Shown here in pieces: positions 35,563-40,870 of a DNA stretch of 64,000 bases (positions within the stretch are counted from its first letter, which is position 1; the number at the start of each line of letters is the position of its first letter). The position numbers were made by a program, and so were the translations under genes. The stretch comes from Microbispora sp. H11081 (GTDB taxonomy: Bacteria > Actinomycetota > Actinomycetes > Streptosporangiales > Streptosporangiaceae). The DNA is taken from assembly GCF_012999535.1 (NCBI RefSeq), contig NZ_JABBWV010000011.1, positions 62,001 to 126,000 on the forward strand. The letters run 5' to 3'. Under the pieces are notes generated by a model. That model was given only the letters and a program-made list of their open reading frames with translations, searched no databases and had not been told where the DNA came from.

Positions 35563-35817
35563 TCACCGCATACCGGCGGTCGTGACCTCCCTGTCGGCGA
35601 TCCTGGTCGCGCCCTCCTCGCGCGCGCAGTGCGCGCAGCAGAACCAGCGGCCGTCGTACTCGGCGCCGTGGCCCACGATCCGGCACCCGCAGTGCTCGCA
35701 TACGGGTGCCATCCGGGTGATGGCGCACTCGAAGCTGTCGAAGACGTGCACCGCGCCCTGGCTGTGCACTTCGAAGGCCATGTCGTAGTCGTTGCCGCAC
35801 ACTTCACAGGTAGCCAT
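35563..35817 (-). CDS. Prokaryotic metallothionein-like cysteine-rich protein
   Basis: An 84-residue protein with nine cysteines at about 4, 7, 31, 40, 43, 45, 60, 61 and 64, in the order CEVCGNDYD, DSFECA, PVCEHCGCRIVGHG and FCCAHCARE. It also has several histidines. This matches a small widespread family often annotated as prokaryotic metallothionein and probably binds zinc. It may store or buffer zinc, or be a zinc-stabilised binding module. The ATG at 35817 has GGGGGA six bases upstream; the longer frame adds 20 residues without support. Confidence 0.85.
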   Translation of the reverse strand: MATCEVCGNDYDMAFEVHSQGAVHVFDSFECAITRMAPVCEHCGCRIVGHGAEYDGRWFCCAHCAREEGATRIADREVTTAGMR

Positions 35818-35881: not shown

Positions 35882-37933
35882 TCACAGAGCGTCGAGCAGG
35901 GCTTTCGCCACCGACTTGGCCCCCTCCTCGGCCTCCTTCGGGTCCATGAGCACGGAATCGGACGAGTTGATCGGCGTGTTCTCCGGGCGGTCGCTGCCGG
36001 ACAGCAGCACCCAGATGACGTTCTTGCCGTCCTGCGCCCAGATCTCGTACCGGTTGCCCTGGGCCGTCTGGGTACGTTGCCGGATCGCCTGGCCGAACGC
36101 CTCCTGCCCGAAGCCGGTCAGCTTCTGGACCTTGCCCCACCGGATGCCGCCGATCTCGCTGCTCGCCGTGAACTTGGTCTTCGAGCGCTCGTCGATGAGG
36201 TGATACCGGGCGGATTCCTCGTCCCAGAAGCTGTGGATCGCGACACGGAGGTTCCGCCAGCGGACCTTGCCGCCGCCGAGCGGCAGTTTCTCGTTCCACC
36301 ACTGGCACTGGGTGACGGTCGAGTTGCCCTCCTTGCTCCGCACCGCCGCGCCCTCGGTCCCCGGCACCAGCGTCGCGGTCAGCGGCTTGAGCCGCACGCA
36401 GGCGCTCGGCAGCGGGATCCGGGTGGGCGAGGGCGACGGCGAAGGGCTCGGCTTCGGGCGCGCGTGGTACGGCAGCGGGCGCCCGTCCCGCCAGGCGGCC
36501 ACCGACTTCGCGACCTGCGTGAGAAGGCCCTTCACCTCGCGCAGGGCGTTCTCCTCGGTGATCGACTGGGTGGTCTCGCTGGAGAAGATCTTGGCTTCCT
36601 TCTTCTGCTGGCTCGCCTCGTACTTCACCTGGAAGACCACGTCGCCGACCCGGCCGACCCCCTGGCCGTAGGAGTACCAGTGCTTGCCGGTCTCCCGCGT
36701 CCAGTGGTACTGCGCGGCCGCCTGGTCCCCGATCCCCTGATACTCCTGGGCCTCCGAGTAGTAGCGCTCCTCGTCAGAGTGGGTCGCCTGGTACTTGTAC
36801 TGCCTGAGCTCGCCGTCGTACTGGATCCGTGCCGATTTCTCCGCCGTGGTCGTCCCGATCGCCTCGTACCTGGACACATTCACCGTGATCTCACGGCTGC
36901 GGGTGACGTCCTTGTAGGAGATGTCCCGGTTGACCCAGCCGCAGGTGTAGCGGACGTAGCTGACGAAGGTGCCGTCCCTGTTGTCGTTCGTCGAGGATTC
37001 GATCTTGGCCTTCGGCACGAGGCGCTCGGCGTCGTCCGGGTCGAGCATCGAGCACGCGTCGGCGCCTGCCGCCTGTGGCACCGCCGACGCCGACTTCCCG
37101 GCCGGCGACGGCTCGGCCGAACCCGCCGGGCGGGTCGGCGTCCCCGCCTGGCGCACCGACATGAACGCGAACGTGCCGCCGGCCACCGTCAGCACGGCGA
37201 CGACCGCCACCACCGGTATGACCCAGCCGCGCCGCGCCGGGGCCGACGGCTCGGTCGGCATCTGCCACAGCTCGGGCGGTGGCGGCGTCGCGGGCTGCCA
37301 GCCCTGTCCCTGCCGCGCGTCCCCGCCGCTCTGGCCGGGGTACGGGCTCGAATAAGGGCTCGAGTAGGGGCTCGAGTAAGGGCTTGGATACGGGCCCGGG
37401 TGCTGGCCCCGCTGCCCGGGTGGCGGAGGGGACGGCGGGCCGGCCTGCCCGCCGGGCGGCGGATAGGGGTAGGGGTTCTGCTGCTGCCCGCCCTGCGGCT
37501 GCTGCTGCGGCCCGCCCTGGGGCCCCGCCTGCTGCGGCCAGGCCTGCCCGCCCGGATAACCGCCGGGCTGCTGACCGGGGTACTGCCCAGGCTGCTGAGC
37601 GGGGTAAGGGCCGGGCTGCTGACCGGGGTAGGGGCCGGGGTACTGCCCGGGCTGCGGCTGCGGACCGGGTTGCGCGCCCGGATACCCGCCGAAGCCAGGA
37701 CCTTGCGCCGGCTGTCCACCCGGCGGGGCACCCGGATACGCGCCCGACTGAGATCGCGGATCCTGCGGCACAGGCGGCCCGTACGGCTGGTACGGATCCT
37801 GAGGACCATGCGGTCCCTGCGGCGCGCCCGGCGGCGGACCGTACGGGGGCGGGTACGGCGGCACGCCCTGCCGGGGGCGGTCCTGGGGAGGAGGTCCGCC
37901 GGTCTCGGGGGGTGTGTCGTCACCGCTGGTCAT
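35882..37933 (-). CDS. Membrane protein with Pro/Gln/Gly-rich cytoplasmic tail and DUF3558-like sensor lobes
   Basis: A 683-residue single-pass protein. Residues 1-235 are extremely rich in proline, glutamine, glycine and tyrosine (repeats such as PGQYPGQQPG), resembling the tails of kinase-associated or FHA-type membrane proteins. A transmembrane helix follows (VIPVVAVVAVLTVAGGTFAF, about 240-262). The outer part has two lobes of about 200 residues separated by a proline/serine linker; each begins with a cysteine pattern like DACSMLDPDDAERLVP and later YTCGWVN or TQCQWWN, similar to DUF3558-type lobes. It is the third gene of an operon after two kinases, 22 bases behind the second. It may be their partner or substrate. 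GGAG lies five bases before the ATG at 37933. Confidence 0.75.
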   Translation of the reverse strand: MTSGDDTPPETGGPPPQDRPRQGVPPYPPPYGPPPGAPQGPHGPQDPYQPYGPPVPQDPRSQSGAYPGAPPGGQPAQGPGFGGYPGAQPGPQPQPGQYPGPYPGQQPGPYPAQQPGQYPGQQPGGYPGGQAWPQQAGPQGGPQQQPQGGQQQNPYPYPPPGGQAGPPSPPPPGQRGQHPGPYPSPYSSPYSSPYSSPYPGQSGGDARQGQGWQPATPPPPELWQMPTEPSAPARRGWVIPVVAVVAVLTVAGGTFAFMSVRQAGTPTRPAGSAEPSPAGKSASAVPQAAGADACSMLDPDDAERLVPKAKIESSTNDNRDGTFVSYVRYTCGWVNRDISYKDVTRSREITVNVSRYEAIGTTTAEKSARIQYDGELRQYKYQATHSDEERYYSEAQEYQGIGDQAAAQYHWTRETGKHWYSYGQGVGRVGDVVFQVKYEASQQKKEAKIFSSETTQSITEENALREVKGLLTQVAKSVAAWRDGRPLPYHARPKPSPSPSPSPTRIPLPSACVRLKPLTATLVPGTEGAAVRSKEGNSTVTQCQWWNEKLPLGGGKVRWRNLRVAIHSFWDEESARYHLIDERSKTKFTASSEIGGIRWGKVQKLTGFGQEAFGQAIRQRTQTAQGNRYEIWAQDGKNVIWVLLSGSDRPENTPINSSDSVLMDPKEAEEGAKSVAKALLDAL

Positions 37934-37955
37934 TTCGTCTCCTACGGTCGGGAGG

Positions 37956-39356
37956 TCACCCGAGCCCGATGCCGACGAGTTCGGCGGCACGCTCGGCGGT
38001 GCGCCGGTCGGCCGGGGTGACCGAGGGGTCACCGGCACGCCGATAGGCGACCTCGACGATGAGATTGCTGAGGCGGAACCAGACCGTGGCCCCGGTGGTC
38101 CCGCCGGCGGGTCCGGCGGAGTCGAAGGTGAAGGCCTCGTCGCCGATACCGGGCCGGTCGCGCGGCGCGGCACCCCGCTCGGCGCCCTCGGCCTGCGCGG
38201 CCCTGGCGGCCCGCTCCGCCGCGAGGTCGTGCGATGCCGCCGCGTCGTCCCCGCCGGCGGGCAGCCGGTAGGTCACGGTGATCGCCCCGTCGCGGCCTGT
38301 GGTGTGCTCGTCCCACTCGCATCGCCCCTCCGCGGCGGGTTCCGCGCGCGGCGCGGCGCCGAGGAGTTCGCGGATCTGGGCCTCGGTCAGGCTGCGGCAG
38401 GCGTCCGGGACGGCGGTGAAGCGTGCGGAGCCGTCCTGGTCCCCTGACACCAGCAGCCAGGCGCCCAGGCCCGCCGCCAGCCCGGCGACCACGATCAGGG
38501 CGGCCACGGCGGCCAGCCGCCATGCCCGCGCGGGGCGCGCGGTGGGCGTCGGCGGCGCGGCGGCGGCCCGCAACGCCTGCCGTACGACGTCGGGGGGCGG
38601 CCGCCGCGCCGGGTCCTTGTCCAGCAGCGCGAGCACGATCCACGCGAGGACCCGGGAGGCCCGCGTCATCGGCCGGGGCTCGTGCAGCAGGACGGCGGCG
38701 GCGAGCGCGGCGGCCGTACCCCGCTGGAAGGGCGGCTCCCCCTCCACGGCCGTGTAGAGCGTGGCGCCCAGCGACCACAGGTCGGAGGGCGGGCCGTCGG
38801 GCTCGTCCCTGAAGCGTTCGGGGGCCATGTAGGTCGGCGAGCCCGCCGAGCTCTGCCAGGAGCCGCCCGCGCCGCCCACAGGCGCGGCGATCCCGAAGTC
38901 GGTGAGCAGGGCCCTGCCGTCCGGTGCGATGAGGACGTTGGCCGGTTTCACGTCGCGGTGCAGGATGCCCCGGGAGTGGGCCGCCTCCAGCGCGTCGAGC
39001 ACCGCCAGCCCGATCTCGGCCACCCGCTCGGAGGGAAGCGGCCCCTCCGCCTGGATGATCTTGTCGAGGGAGCGGCCGGGCACCAGGTCCATGACGATCC
39101 ACGGCTGCCCGGCGTGCCCGACGACGTCGTGGATCGTCACGATGCCGGGATGGGTGAGCCGCCCTGCCGCCCTGGCCTCGTCGACGGCTCTGCCCAGGAA
39201 GCCCGCCCGCTGCCGGTCGTCAAGGCCGGGCGGGACGCGCACCTGCTTGATCGCCACCTCCCGGTTCAGCAGTTCGTCGTGGGCGCGCCAGACCGTGCCG
39301 CCGCCGCCCTCACCCAGCGGTTCTGCGAGCCGGTAGCGTCCGGCGAGCGGATCCAC
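37956..39356 (-). CDS. Receptor-like Ser/Thr protein kinase (second of pair)
   Basis: A 466-residue membrane kinase. The kinase domain (about 7-270) has the glycine loop GEGGGGTVWRAHD, lysine K37 in VAIKQVR, catalytic HRDVKPAN (D135) and TDFGIAAP, and SPTYMAPERF in the activation segment. A single membrane helix (LAAVAALIVVAGLAAGLGAW) follows, then an extracytoplasmic domain of about 160 residues starting VPDACRSLTEAQIRELLGAA and containing GRCEWDEH. The same pattern occurs in the upstream kinase and, more distantly, in the downstream membrane protein. The GTG at 39356 lies two bases after the upstream stop codon, so translation is coupled. Its targets are unknown. Confidence 0.88.
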   Translation of the reverse strand: MDPLAGRYRLAEPLGEGGGGTVWRAHDELLNREVAIKQVRVPPGLDDRQRAGFLGRAVDEARAAGRLTHPGIVTIHDVVGHAGQPWIVMDLVPGRSLDKIIQAEGPLPSERVAEIGLAVLDALEAAHSRGILHRDVKPANVLIAPDGRALLTDFGIAAPVGGAGGSWQSSAGSPTYMAPERFRDEPDGPPSDLWSLGATLYTAVEGEPPFQRGTAAALAAAVLLHEPRPMTRASRVLAWIVLALLDKDPARRPPPDVVRQALRAAAAPPTPTARPARAWRLAAVAALIVVAGLAAGLGAWLLVSGDQDGSARFTAVPDACRSLTEAQIRELLGAAPRAEPAAEGRCEWDEHTTGRDGAITVTYRLPAGGDDAAASHDLAAERAARAAQAEGAERGAAPRDRPGIGDEAFTFDSAGPAGGTTGATVWFRLSNLIVEVAYRRAGDPSVTPADRRTAERAAELVGIGLG

Positions 39357-39358
39357 GG

Positions 39359-40870
39359 CTAGGCCAGCCCTCTCAGGCCCTCGGCCGCCGCCTCCGCCGC
39401 GGCGACCGCCCGGTCGCGCAGGTCCGCGGGCGACTTCGCGTCGAGGTCGGCGTACTGGAGCCTGGCCACGAGATCGCCGAGCCTGAAGTACACGACTGTG
39501 GCCTGGGCCCCGCCCTCCGGCGTGGTGAGGTCCACCGCGAACGCCTCGTCGGCCGCCTCCGGCACGTCCCTGGCGGCCGACTCGATGGCCGGGCTCCTGC
39601 GGTCGAGGCCGATCTCGTACCAGATCCAGTCGCGGTCGCGCGGGCCCGTCGCGTACTGCCTGCGCAGCCCCTCCAGGAGCGCGTGCGCGGAGGCCGTGTC
39701 GAGCGCCCACGGGTCGGGGGTGTCGGAGTCGGTCTCCGCGCTGAGCGCGATGCCGGAGCCCGTGACGGCCCACTGGCAGCTCTCCTTGCCAGGCCGCGCC
39801 TGCGCGGCGGCCCCCAGGATGCTCCGCACCCGGTCGGCCGGCAGCGACCGGCACAGGTCCACGGCACGTTCGAAGGACGGCGAGGCCAGGCGTACGGAGT
39901 CGTCCGGCGGCTCGTCCCCCGGCAGCCGCACGGCCAGGGCGACCGCGCCGGCCACCACGACGACGGTGGCGGCGCCGATCCACCACCACGTCCGCCGGCG
40001 GCGCGGCGGGGGTTCGATCCTGATGCCCGGAGCGTGGTCCACGGACGGCGTGCCCCCGGCGGCGACCTCGCGCAGCAGCGTGAGCGCGGTCGCCGCGTCG
40101 GGCCGGCGGGCGGGGTCTCGGGCCATCATCCACGCCAGCACCGGGCCGAGCGGCCCCGCGAGCGCCGGAGGACGGGGAGGCAGGGTGAGGGTCGCCTCGA
40201 TGACCTCGGCGCGGGAGCCGCGGTACGGGGCGACGCCCTCGACGGCCGTGTAGAGGGTGGCGGCGAGCGACCACAGGTCGGCGGCGGGGCCGCCGGGCTC
40301 GCCCGCGAGGCGTTCCGGCGCCATGTAGCCCGGCGAGCCGACCAGCAGCCCGGTCTCCGTGATCGGCGCCTGGCCGGCCTGGCGGGCGATGCCGAAGTCG
40401 GTGAGCAGCACCCGGCCGTCGGCACAGAGGAAGACGTTGCCCGGTTTGACGTCGCGGTGCTGCACTCCCCCGGCGTGCGTGGCCGACAGCGCGTCGAGCA
40501 GGCGGGCCCCGAGGTCGGCCGCCTGACGGTACGGCAGCGGCCCGTACGCCGCGATCCACCGGGCGAGGTCGTGGCCGTGGAGCAACTCCATGACGATCCA
40601 CGGCCTGCCGTCCTGGAGGAGCACGTCGTGGAGGGCGACGATCCCAGGGTGGCGGACGCGCGCGGTGGCCTCGGCCTCGCGCATGACCCTGGCCACGAGT
40701 TCGGCCCGCTCACGCTCGCCGAGGCCGTCGGGGACGCGCAGCTCCTTGATCGCCACTTCGCGGTCGAGCACGGAGTCCCTGGCCAGCCAGACCGTGCCCA
40801 TGCCGCCGGAGCCCAGCGGGCGCAGGAGGTGGTATCGCGAGGCCGGCGTCCCCCTCAGCGATTCGACCAT
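39359..40870 (-). CDS. Receptor-like Ser/Thr protein kinase (first of pair)
   Basis: A 503-residue membrane kinase. The kinase domain (about 13-270) shows GSGGMGTVWLARD, K42 in VAIKEL, HRDVKPGN (D140) and TDFGIARQ (158-160 is DFG), and SPGYMAPERL. A short linker leads to one membrane helix (about 294-315, WWWIGAATVVVVAGAVALAV). The outer domain starts AVDLCRSLPADRVRSILGAA, contains ESCQWAV, and closely parallels the sensor of the next kinase. Kinases of this type read cell-envelope signals. The ATG at 40870 lacks a Shine-Dalgarno sequence, and TATTCT lies 7 bases upstream, so the transcript may be leaderless. It heads the three-gene operon. Confidence 0.88.
   Translation of the reverse strand: MVESLRGTPASRYHLLRPLGSGGMGTVWLARDSVLDREVAIKELRVPDGLGERERAELVARVMREAEATARVRHPGIVALHDVLLQDGRPWIVMELLHGHDLARWIAAYGPLPYRQAADLGARLLDALSATHAGGVQHRDVKPGNVFLCADGRVLLTDFGIARQAGQAPITETGLLVGSPGYMAPERLAGEPGGPAADLWSLAATLYTAVEGVAPYRGSRAEVIEATLTLPPRPPALAGPLGPVLAWMMARDPARRPDAATALTLLREVAAGGTPSVDHAPGIRIEPPPRRRRTWWWIGAATVVVVAGAVALAVRLPGDEPPDDSVRLASPSFERAVDLCRSLPADRVRSILGAAAQARPGKESCQWAVTGSGIALSAETDSDTPDPWALDTASAHALLEGLRRQYATGPRDRDWIWYEIGLDRRSPAIESAARDVPEAADEAFAVDLTTPEGGAQATVVYFRLGDLVARLQYADLDAKSPADLRDRAVAAAEAAAEGLRGLA

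What the first reader, a model, noticed from the sequence alone, without database searches (positions are those of the whole stretch)
35882..40870. Two receptor kinases and a membrane protein share one type of extracytoplasmic module
Both kinases and the third protein carry outer domains that begin with an acidic or neutral cysteine helix (CRSLPADRVRSILG, CRSLTEAQIRELLG, CSMLDPDDAERLVP) followed by a cysteine/tryptophan strand (SCQWAV, RCEWDE, TCGWVN, TQCQWW). The third protein has two such lobes. The genes are separated by 2 and 22 bases. I infer a three-part envelope sensor in which related domains may bind the same ligand or each other; I know of no described system with this layout.
Basis: partly seen in the sequence, partly recalled or inferred. 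Interest (0 to 1): 0.62.

Follow-up and report, generated by a model that had tools for sequence, protein, structure and literature searches.

The report
Paralogous receptor kinases sharing sensor domain
A soil actinomycete carries three neighbouring genes, two membrane-spanning signalling kinases and one kinase-less partner, whose outward-facing parts are four copies of one duplicated sensor domain; the set is kept together in relatives and probably forms one mixed receptor.

Summary
In a genome closest to Microbispora, PK1 (39359-40870), PK2 (37956-39356) and P3 (35882-37933) lie 2 and 22 bases apart on the minus strand. Their four outer lobes are homologous: profile-profile probabilities 95.4-99.65%, column-shuffled controls at most 1.7%. 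The predicted folds of PK1's lobe and both P3 lobes share one layout; PK2's was not folded. The best solved match is the M. tuberculosis PknH sensor domain (Z 13.6 and 14.9), without sequence support. A link to DUF3558 is suggestive and below Pfam's cut-off. Two cysteines per lobe are invariant. PK1-PK2-P3 order holds in all 44 distinct loci with enough flanking DNA.

In 19 complete arrays, genes 1 and 3 are kinases (two gene-1 copies lack one catalytic residue), gene 4 is a pseudokinase, and gene 2 keeps only a kinase C-lobe (15) or none (4). PK1 groups firmly with gene 1, PK2 less firmly with gene 3.

Best reading: a hetero-oligomeric envelope receptor with two kinases and dead or kinase-less co-receptors. 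Assembly and ligand are inferred.

The parts
39359..40870 (-). PK1: membrane receptor Ser/Thr kinase, 503 aa (ATG at 40870)
   Evidence: ORF; Pkinase E 8.9e-43, residues 13-263; HRD in 45 of 45 rows, 44 of them distinct
40082..40834 (-). PK1 Hanks-type kinase domain (VAIK, HRDxxxxN, DFG intact)
39923..39982 (-). PK1 single transmembrane segment, basic residues on the kinase side
   Evidence: hydropathy
39362..39889 (-). PK1 extracytoplasmic lobe (PknH-sensor-like fold, two invariant Cys)
   Evidence: model pLDDT 95.7; 4ESQ Z 13.6, rmsd 3.1, 151 aligned; C13, C38, W40 invariant in 44 of 44
37956..39356 (-). PK2: membrane receptor Ser/Thr kinase, 466 aa (GTG at 39356)
   Evidence: ORF; Pkinase E 3.6e-46
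38595..39335 (-). PK2 Hanks-type kinase domain
38448..38507 (-). PK2 single transmembrane segment
   Evidence: hydropathy
37959..38435 (-). PK2 extracytoplasmic lobe, paralogous to PK1's (not folded)
   Evidence: hhalign to PK1 lobe 99.65%, E 4.5e-25; C13, C39, W41 invariant in 43 of 43
35882..37933 (-). P3: kinase-less membrane protein, 683 aa, with two lobes
   Evidence: ORF; no kinase match in its N-part or in those of relatives
37223..37933 (-). P3 Pro/Gly/Gln-rich cytoplasmic tail, 237 aa; about 16 to 799 aa in relatives (from the first ATG/GTG after PK2)
37163..37222 (-). P3 transmembrane segment
   Evidence: hydropathy
36482..37072 (-). P3 lobe 1
   Evidence: two-lobe model pLDDT 92.0; 4TMD Z 11.1, rmsd 3.8, 153 aligned, model residues 6-199; C13, C50 invariant in 50 of 50
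35885..36424 (-). P3 lobe 2
   Evidence: 4ESQ Z 14.9, rmsd 2.6, 144 aligned; C231, C262 invariant in 50 of 50

Best explanation
The three genes encode one hetero-oligomeric envelope receptor. Supported by computation: PK1 and PK2 are kinases with intact catalytic motifs and one transmembrane helix each, P3 is a kinase-less membrane protein, and all four outer lobes descend from one sensor domain whose predicted fold resembles the PknH ectodomain. The trees support one lobe duplication inside P3, and PK1-type and PK2-type kinases that already coexisted before the split from the related four-gene arrays. Inferred: the lobes associate with one another, directly or through a shared small envelope ligand bound in their clefts. 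This brings the PK1 and PK2 kinase domains together for trans-autophosphorylation through the conserved N-lobe dimer face. P3, with tandem lobes, acts as a co-receptor or bridge that sets stoichiometry or ligand sensitivity. In the sister arrays the same role is filled by pseudokinase and kinase-less paralogs. Ligand, substrates and physiological output are unknown.
For: Homology of all four lobes and matching predicted layouts. Order PK1-PK2-P3 on one strand in 44 of 44 distinct loci including the window, with Microbispora, Sphaerimonospora, Nonomuraea and Thermoactinospora among the named ones. Of 150 family genomes (own included) 38 carry a full P3, in 14 of 68 genera. In the same 150 handles the PK1-lobe profile has 39 places with E below 1e-60: one in each of those 38 genomes and a second in G100 (the second, L204, showed a kinase with this lobe but no PK2- or P3-type neighbour within the 12 kb taken). 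Lobe tree: P3L1+P3L2 together 99/96, PK1+gene 1 100/99. Kinase tree: PK1+gene 1 100/99; PK2, gene 3 and gene 4 together 98/85. In 24 of 24 four-gene loci at least one member has the ectodomain but no competent kinase. Gene 4 lost VAIK-Lys in 18, HRD-Asp in 19, Asn in 18 and DFG-Asp in 18 of 19, yet keeps three N-lobe dimer residues (R 19, L 18, D 19 of 19; PknB R10, L33, D76 recalled). Ectodomain distances correlate after controlling for kinase-domain distances (partial 0.14-0.50, 40 loci). TiME, a protein with a related fold, forms rings (PMC11434571, passages).
Against: No physical interaction, complex model or expression evidence. Paralogs in an operon can be kept for dosage or redundancy. 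The distance correlation could come from different rates and saturation. The three dimer residues are among 27 of 80 conserved columns kept in at least 18 of 19 gene-4 copies, so their retention is only mildly informative. P3's tail is only about 16-38 aa in ten loci, so it cannot be essential to a common mechanism. The placement of P3 beside PK2 (94/76) and gene 3 (83/70) is weak, gene-4 lobes do not form one group in the lobe tree, and PK1 and PK2 kinase domains are not shown to be each other's closest relatives: their two groups meet eight other kinases of the genome in an unresolved fork. P3 does not follow PK2 tightly everywhere (first ATG/GTG 1429 bases away in L007, 537 in L072). For the two-lobe model pTM is 0.79 and no inter-lobe error was given.
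Confidence: 0.5

Rival explanations
1. Independent homodimeric receptors: PK1 and PK2 each dimerise only with themselves and sense related but different ligands; P3 is a separate binding protein. Shared domains reflect duplication only.
For: The lobes of the window's set have diverged to 18-30% identity between paralogs. PK2 is non-RD (HQD or HHD) in 13 of 44 readable rows while PK1 is HRD in 45 of 45, so the two kinases may be regulated differently. PknH1 and PknH2 are described as having different sensor domains (PMC7785237, passages).
Against: Co-retention of all three genes in 44 of 44 loci, and the recurrent presence of partners without a competent kinase in 24 of 24 four-gene relatives.
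Confidence: 0.3
2. P3 is a structural or transport component of the envelope: its tandem PknH/TiME-like lobes assemble a ring or tube, and the two kinases with matching lobes monitor its assembly state.
For: TiME is the second-best structural match (Z 12.7 for the PK1 lobe, 14.0 for P3 lobe 2) and assembles rings across the mycobacterial envelope (PMC11434571, passages; its PknH-like domain is stated in PMC4118811). P3 was duplicated in tandem in 6 loci.
Against: Sequence profiles do not link the lobes to PknH_C (at most 10%). P3 appears tethered to the inner membrane by an uncleaved helix with a cytoplasmic tail (inference from hydropathy). The family has no mycomembrane (recalled).
Confidence: 0.12
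3. Operon inertia: P3 and the degenerate array members are decaying duplicates with no function.
For: Array gene 2 looks like a decay series: C-lobe only in 15 of 19, no kinase match in 4 of 19.
Against: The P3 frames stay open, and the four cysteines are invariant in 50 of 50 P3/P3b rows down to 29% identity. In gene 2 both ectodomain cysteines remain in 19 of 19 although the kinase is cut down or gone.
Confidence: 0.06

Closest known systems
Mycobacterium tuberculosis PknH (receptor Ser/Thr kinase, PknH_C sensor domain, PDB 4ESQ)
   Same: Cytoplasmic Hanks kinase, one TM helix, C-terminal outer domain of similar fold (Z 13.6 for the PK1 lobe, 14.9 for P3 lobe 2).
   Different: No sequence relation found between the domains; PknH's domain has two disulfides (PMC4118811), the window's lobes have two Cys each.
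PknH-like stand-alone envelope proteins of M. tuberculosis (Rv3705c/TiME, LpqQ, LprH, LppH, LpqA)
   Same: A receptor kinase's sensor domain also occurring in kinase-less envelope proteins (PMC4118811).
   Different: Those are secreted or lipoproteins; P3 is a TM protein with two lobes, co-encoded with two kinases bearing its paralogous domain.
pknH1-tbd2-pknH2 locus (RD900) of the M. tuberculosis complex
   Same: Neighbouring paralogous receptor kinases.
   Different: The two have different sensor domains and flank a potential ABC-transporter gene (PMC7785237, passages).
DUF3558 (PF12079) proteins
   Same: Matches at E up to 0.1 in 39 of 44 PK1, 31 of 43 PK2 and 7 of 50 P3/P3b ectodomains (best 1.2e-7, 9.5e-7, 2.5e-5), over the Cys / C-x-W region. 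Of 11 places over the cut-off in the order scan, two are ectodomains of kinases (L092, L094).
   Different: The window's proteins are below the curated cut-off, and P3 lobe 2 shows no profile link. Five over-cut-off members are short frames of 182-223 aa with no kinase match.
ActPs3 pseudokinases (for gene 4 of the sister arrays)
   Same: Actinobacterial, all catalytic motifs degraded, activation-loop deletion, C-terminal TM, N-lobe dimer face constrained (PMC12599244, section 8).
   Different: Gene 4 groups with PK2 and gene 3 in the kinase tree and carries the shared ectodomain; assignment to ActPs3 was not tested.

Membership tests
Hanks-type receptor Ser/Thr kinases (PK1, PK2) | Kinase fold with VAIK Lys, HRD Asp, Asn, DFG Asp | tested here: met
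   Pfam Pkinase 147 and 158.1 bits, cut-off 31.7; residues intact in the window and in every row readable at that column
Hanks-type receptor Ser/Thr kinases (PK1, PK2) | Autophosphorylation and ligand-driven dimerisation | not testable with these tools
   needs experiment
PASTA kinases (PknB/PrkC) | Extracellular PASTA repeats and NCBIfam NF033483 cut-off (450 bits) | tested here: not met
   204.2 and 219 bits, kinase part only; no PASTA family listed up to E 5 in Pfam
DUF3558 (PF12079) | Curated Pfam gathering score 34.1 | tested here: not met
   18.8, 16.1 and 15.7 bits for PK1, PK2, P3; a PK1-like paralog in G100 reaches 38.9 bits (overlapping its place)
DUF3558 (PF12079) | Homology at profile level | tested here: inconclusive
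   A first set (PK1 96%, PK2 91%, P3L1 56%, P3L2 0.6%) held two kinase ectodomains and one empty row. Cleaned (8 kinase-free rows): PK1 84.6%, PK2 76.9%, P3L1 13.4%, P3L2 0.2%; with five short frames only: 5.6%, 56.6%, 3.5%, 0.2%
PknH_C (PF14032) | Sequence match to the family | tested here: not met
   No match at E 1e-5 in the window's genome nor in the Pfam scans; hhalign to 27 members 0.3-4.9% for the four lobes, at most 10.1% for array lobes
PknH_C (PF14032) | Fold of the PknH sensor domain | tested here: met
   4ESQ best VIA-align match, Z 13.6 (151 aligned, rmsd 3.1) for the PK1 lobe and Z 14.9 (144, 2.6) for P3 lobe 2; Foldseek alone gave E 1.2e-3 and 1.7e-3
PknH_C (PF14032) | Two intramolecular disulfides | tested here: not met
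   Exactly two Cys in the window's lobes; in orthologs exactly two in 43 of 44 PK1, 26 of 43 PK2, 44 of 44 P3L1 and 44 of 44 P3L2. PknH's two disulfides as stated in PMC4118811
ActPs3 pseudokinases (sister-array gene 4) | All catalytic motifs degraded and activation-loop deletion | tested here: met
   Losses in 18-19 of 19 per residue; profile match interrupted between model positions about 150-157 and 181-189 in 16 of 19; L195 is an exception that keeps Lys, Asn and DFG

The most novel reading that the evidence does not exclude
A family-specific class of bacterial hetero-oligomeric receptor kinases: two divergent active kinases plus dedicated co-receptors, made from the same receptor type by losing catalysis (pseudokinase), losing the N-lobe, or having no kinase at all and a doubled sensor (P3). 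This would be a bacterial parallel to eukaryotic receptor sets with active and dead members such as HER2/HER3 (comparison recalled), assembled through one shared sensor fold.
Probability: 0.38. Interest if true: 0.77.

Novelty: new variant of a known kind. Interest (0 to 1): 0.58.

Why it matters
Bacterial receptor Ser/Thr kinases are mostly studied as homodimers, and what their non-PASTA sensor domains recognise is largely open (both from general knowledge). Operons in which two kinases are kept together with dead or kinase-less paralogs carrying the same sensor give a testable case for heteromeric kinase receptors and for what bacterial pseudokinases are for; a 2025 review calls bacterial pseudokinases largely unexplored experimentally (PMC12599244, abstract). 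The domain family nearest by sequence, DUF3558, is named in only one paper of the held library, on an unrelated subject by its title.

Tried and rejected
Chance motif similarity was rejected by profile comparison with shuffled controls. Membership in PknH_C by sequence was rejected although the fold agrees. A PASTA kinase was rejected. A firm DUF3558 assignment was not kept: on checking, the set used held two kinase ectodomains (L092, L094) and one empty row; the cleaned comparison is weaker. A defence-system reading: PADLOC listed 33 and 34 families for PK1 and PK2 and none for P3; these look like generic kinase matches and were not used. A kinase remnant in P3 was sought in 51 P3/P3b N-parts (50 distinct) and none was found. 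PDB sequence searches with the PK1 and P3 profiles gave nothing below E 0.85. Neighbours: the GH3 glucosidase is found in 14 of 47 loci and the ROK regulator in 12 of 47, mainly the nearest relatives; flank lengths differ, so absence is not proof. Foldseek ranked aromatase/cyclase di-domains first for the two-lobe model with TM-scores of 0.13-0.19; not followed. Superposing the lobes in 3D was not possible because no coordinates were handed out. No DNA-level selection test was run. In genome searches only part of the first-look candidates were scored (11 or 23 per genome), so absences are lower bounds.

Rows dropped: L044 duplicates L004. PK2 of L076 has no readable kinase frame and was left out of PK2 counts. 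One search left out L044, L064, L065, L068 and L076. L008, L053 and L055 are cut by contig ends and were not counted in the order test; G065, G084 and G119 (strong P3 hits) were not fetched with flanks. The trees used 16 of 44 loci, 10 of 19 arrays, 5 of 6 P3b and 5 DUF3558 rows (lobes), and 14 loci, 10 arrays and 20 of 39 other kinases found in the genome (kinases). One search mapped 34 regions chosen: 19 complete K-dead-K-dead arrays, 5 other four-gene loci (L189, L194, L196, L197, L198), and 10 shorter, truncated or contig-split ones.
Full report
WHAT IS THERE. The window's genome has no name in the tools; its nearest named relatives are Microbispora: eight Microbispora records encode P3 at 75-84% identity and one Sphaerimonospora at 67%. 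The window is G000:C3:62001-126000 of a 7.4-Mb genome. Three same-strand genes run from 40870 down to 35882: PK1 503 aa, PK2 466 aa, P3 683 aa, with gaps of 2 and 22 bases. PK1 and PK2 are Hanks-type kinases (Pfam 147 and 158 bits), each with one transmembrane segment and a C-terminal outer domain. P3 has a Pro/Gly/Gln-rich N-terminal tail, one transmembrane segment with basic residues before it, and two outer lobes.

IS THE SHARED MODULE REAL. Ortholog sets were collected and split into lobes. Profile-profile comparison relates all six pairs of lobes at 95.4-99.65% over 141-171 columns; 12 column-shuffled controls gave 0.07-1.67%; the small P3b sets gave lower values against PK1 and PK2 (35-96.5%). 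Pfam scans of the orthologs matched DUF3558 in 39 of 44 PK1, 31 of 43 PK2 and 7 of 50 P3/P3b ectodomains at E up to 0.1. Two cysteines per lobe are invariant: 44 of 44 PK1, 43 of 43 PK2, and four in 50 of 50 P3/P3b; 17 of 43 PK2 lobes and 1 of 44 PK1 lobes have further cysteines. One disulfide per lobe is an inference.

FOLD. The AlphaFold2 models are confident: PK1 lobe mean pLDDT 95.7, P3 ectodomain 92.0. The order of elements is the same in the PK1 lobe and both P3 lobes: helix, three strands, helix, four or five strands, C-terminal helix. By VIA-align the PK1 lobe's best match is the PknH ectodomain 4ESQ (Z 13.6, rmsd 3.1, 151 aligned), then TiME (Z 12.7). P3 lobe 2's best is 4ESQ (Z 14.9, rmsd 2.6, 144 aligned), then TiME (14.0). 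P3 lobe 1 matches 4TMD, an Rv0999 ortholog (Z 11.1, rmsd 3.8, 153 aligned). Further rows include Mog1, PsbP and LpqN at Z 6-8.5, a level at which the tool warns that a match may mean only a common arrangement. Foldseek itself gave only E 1.2e-3 and 1.7e-3 for 4ESQ. The PK2 lobe was not folded; its fold is inferred from homology to PK1 (E 4.5e-25). By sequence the lobes do not reach PknH_C: hhalign 0.3-4.9% for the four lobes, at most 10.1% for array lobes. The DUF3558 link is suggestive only. My first comparison set contained two kinase ectodomains and an empty row; with 8 kinase-free rows the probabilities are PK1 84.6%, PK2 76.9%, P3L1 13.4%, P3L2 0.2%. Several sub-threshold or over-threshold DUF3558 places in the order scan are themselves members of these kinase sets, for example G100:C1:8860766 and G027:C48:310.

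IS THE GENE SET KEPT. In all 44 distinct loci with enough upstream DNA, the window included, the order is PK1, PK2, P3 on one strand (duplicate found). Two more genomes have the set split by contig ends in a compatible way (G027: L053 and L211; G033: L055 and L212). PK2 of L076 has no readable kinase frame. PK2's kinase starts 8-53 bases after the PK1 stop, measured to its GRY motif in 28 loci; P3 follows less tightly, with its first ATG/GTG 1429 bases away in L007 and 537 in L072. A full P3 occurs in 38 of 150 sampled genomes of the family, own included (14 of 68 genera); four further hits (E 4e-6 to 1.8e-8) are partial. P3 is duplicated in tandem in 6 loci. In the window's own genome the PK2-lobe profile found PK2, PK1 and one weak place (C33:140479, E 0.007), where the lobe and kinase models gave no hit (L148). 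A PK1-lobe search in 296 genomes of the class found 11 family genomes and three weaker, partial hits outside (E 2e-8 to 1.5e-6), in frames of 242-402 aa. The kinase-borne module thus appears restricted to this family (Streptosporangiaceae, name recalled) at this sampling; only 11 candidates per genome were scored.

FOUR-GENE RELATIVES. The PK1-lobe profile hit 59 of 150 family genomes (27 of 68 genera), many at three or four places about 1.4 kb apart. Of 34 regions fetched, 19 are complete arrays of four genes, each with the two conserved Cys. Gene 3 keeps all four catalytic residues in 19 of 19, gene 1 in 17 of 19 (one K to R, one DFG-Asp to Gly). Gene 4 lacks VAIK-Lys in 18, HRD-Asp in 19, Asn in 18 and DFG-Asp in 18 of 19, and its match to the kinase profile is broken over the activation segment in 16 of 19. 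Gene 2 matches only the C-lobe part of the profile (from position 87-93 on) in 15 and has no kinase match in 4. Five further four-gene loci have other orders of competent and degenerate members. In 24 of 24 four-gene loci at least one member lacks a competent kinase. Seven genomes (G009, G044, G058, G087, G095, G112, G133) carry both a three-gene set and a complete four-gene array.

HISTORY. In an ML tree of 119 lobes (a subset; see Tried and rejected), PK1 lobes join gene-1 lobes (100/99), and P3L1 and P3L2 with the P3b lobes form one group (99/96). The P3b lobes nest within each, so the lobe duplication preceded the gene duplication. P3's place beside PK2 (94/76) and gene 3 (83/70) is weak, gene-4 lobes are not one group, and the DUF3558 rows sit on a long branch. 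In a tree of 78 kinase domains, PK1 joins gene 1 (100/99); PK2, gene 3 and gene 4 form one group (98/85), with PK2+gene 3 at 97/78. The 20 other kinases of the window's genome used fall outside both groups, and eight of them share an unresolved fork with the two. The simplest account is an ancestral pair of unlike receptor kinases with one sensor type, which gained dead or kinase-less partners in two ways. Whether P3 itself descends from a kinase is not shown: no kinase match was found in 51 P3/P3b N-parts.

HOW IT PROBABLY WORKS. Bacterial receptor kinases are activated by dimerisation involving the N-lobes, and ligand can induce it (PMC6213207, passages). A dead partner could still contribute a dimer face: the MviN pseudokinase forms a back-to-back dimer (PMC12599244, section 8). 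Gene 4 keeps the residues equivalent to PknB R10, L33 and D76 (19, 18 and 19 of 19) while losing catalysis; the PknB positions are recalled. These are 3 of 27 columns kept in at least 18 of 19 copies, among 80 columns conserved in PK1/PK2, so the signal is mild. In the window's set P3 has no kinase and its tail ranges from about 16 to 799 aa, so what is conserved is the two-lobe outer part. I infer that the lobes co-assemble, with or without a cleft-bound envelope ligand, and that P3 bridges or tunes the PK1/PK2 pair. The PknH cleft has been suggested to bind a small molecule that acts on localisation or oligomerisation of the kinase (PMC4118811, citing the PknH structure paper, which I did not see). 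PK1 is HRD in 45 of 45 rows, whereas PK2 is HQD or HHD in 13 of 44, so the two kinases may be regulated differently. A partial correlation of ectodomain distances controlling for kinase distances is positive for all six pairs (0.14-0.50; 40 loci; permutations as high in 0 of 300 for five pairs and 3 of 300 for PK1-P3L2), highest for P3L1-P3L2 and PK2-P3L2; rate effects could produce this.

NOVELTY. The module's fold, and its sharing between a kinase and stand-alone envelope proteins, are known from mycobacteria (PMC4118811; part 1 of 2 of the whole text read). The three-gene set and the K-dead-K-dead arrays were not found in the searches made: (DUF3558: one paper, seen as a listing only; very loose; nothing returned), over an open-licence library that lacks most subscription papers. 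Other papers: PMC11434571, PMC7785237 and PMC6213207 were seen as passages; PMC12599244 as abstract, passages and sections 6 and 8. I rate it a new variant of a known kind.

Noticed in passing
window 35563-35817 (-): A small Cys-rich protein (84 aa, weak prokaryotic-metallothionein match, E 0.0039) follows P3 after 64 bases; a homolog is found in 24 of the 47 loci searched.
   Followed up: partly
L010-L013, L062, L064, L065, L068, L069, L071, L073, L074, L077: PK2 has HQD or HHD instead of HRD (non-RD kinase) while PK1 of the same loci stays HRD.
   Followed up: partly
L060, L061, L063, L066, L070, L075: P3 is duplicated in tandem, giving PK1-PK2-P3-P3b.
   Followed up: yes
L189:10793-11800 and L192:4147-5328: Membrane proteins with a single P3-lobe-2-like domain lie beside gene 1 of two loci, on the opposite strand; possible single-lobe relatives of P3.
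   Followed up: no
L094 (G190:C1:1176821-1177285): A 617-aa frame outside the mapped sets carries a kinase domain and a DUF3558 match over the Pfam cut-off, so kinases with this kind of ectodomain occur beyond the loci studied.
   Followed up: no
L076 (PK2 region): PK2 shows no readable kinase frame although its ectodomain is present: frameshift, assembly error or decay.
   Followed up: no
L145, L146 (own genome C33 and C1): Other tandem kinase pairs, among the nearest kinases to PK1 in this genome (48-53% identity), carry no match to the shared lobe.
   Followed up: partly
L193:4524-6659, L199 gene 1, L200 gene 1: Some gene-1 copies have lost catalytic residues (Lys to Arg and HRD-Asp to Gly; Lys to Arg; DFG-Asp to Gly), so even the usually active member may be decaying there.
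   Followed up: no
window 37223-37933 (-): The P3 tail is a low-complexity Pro/Gly/Gln/Tyr region; Ser+Thr content is 7-10% in the Microbispora tails but 12-17% in L050-L058.
   Followed up: no
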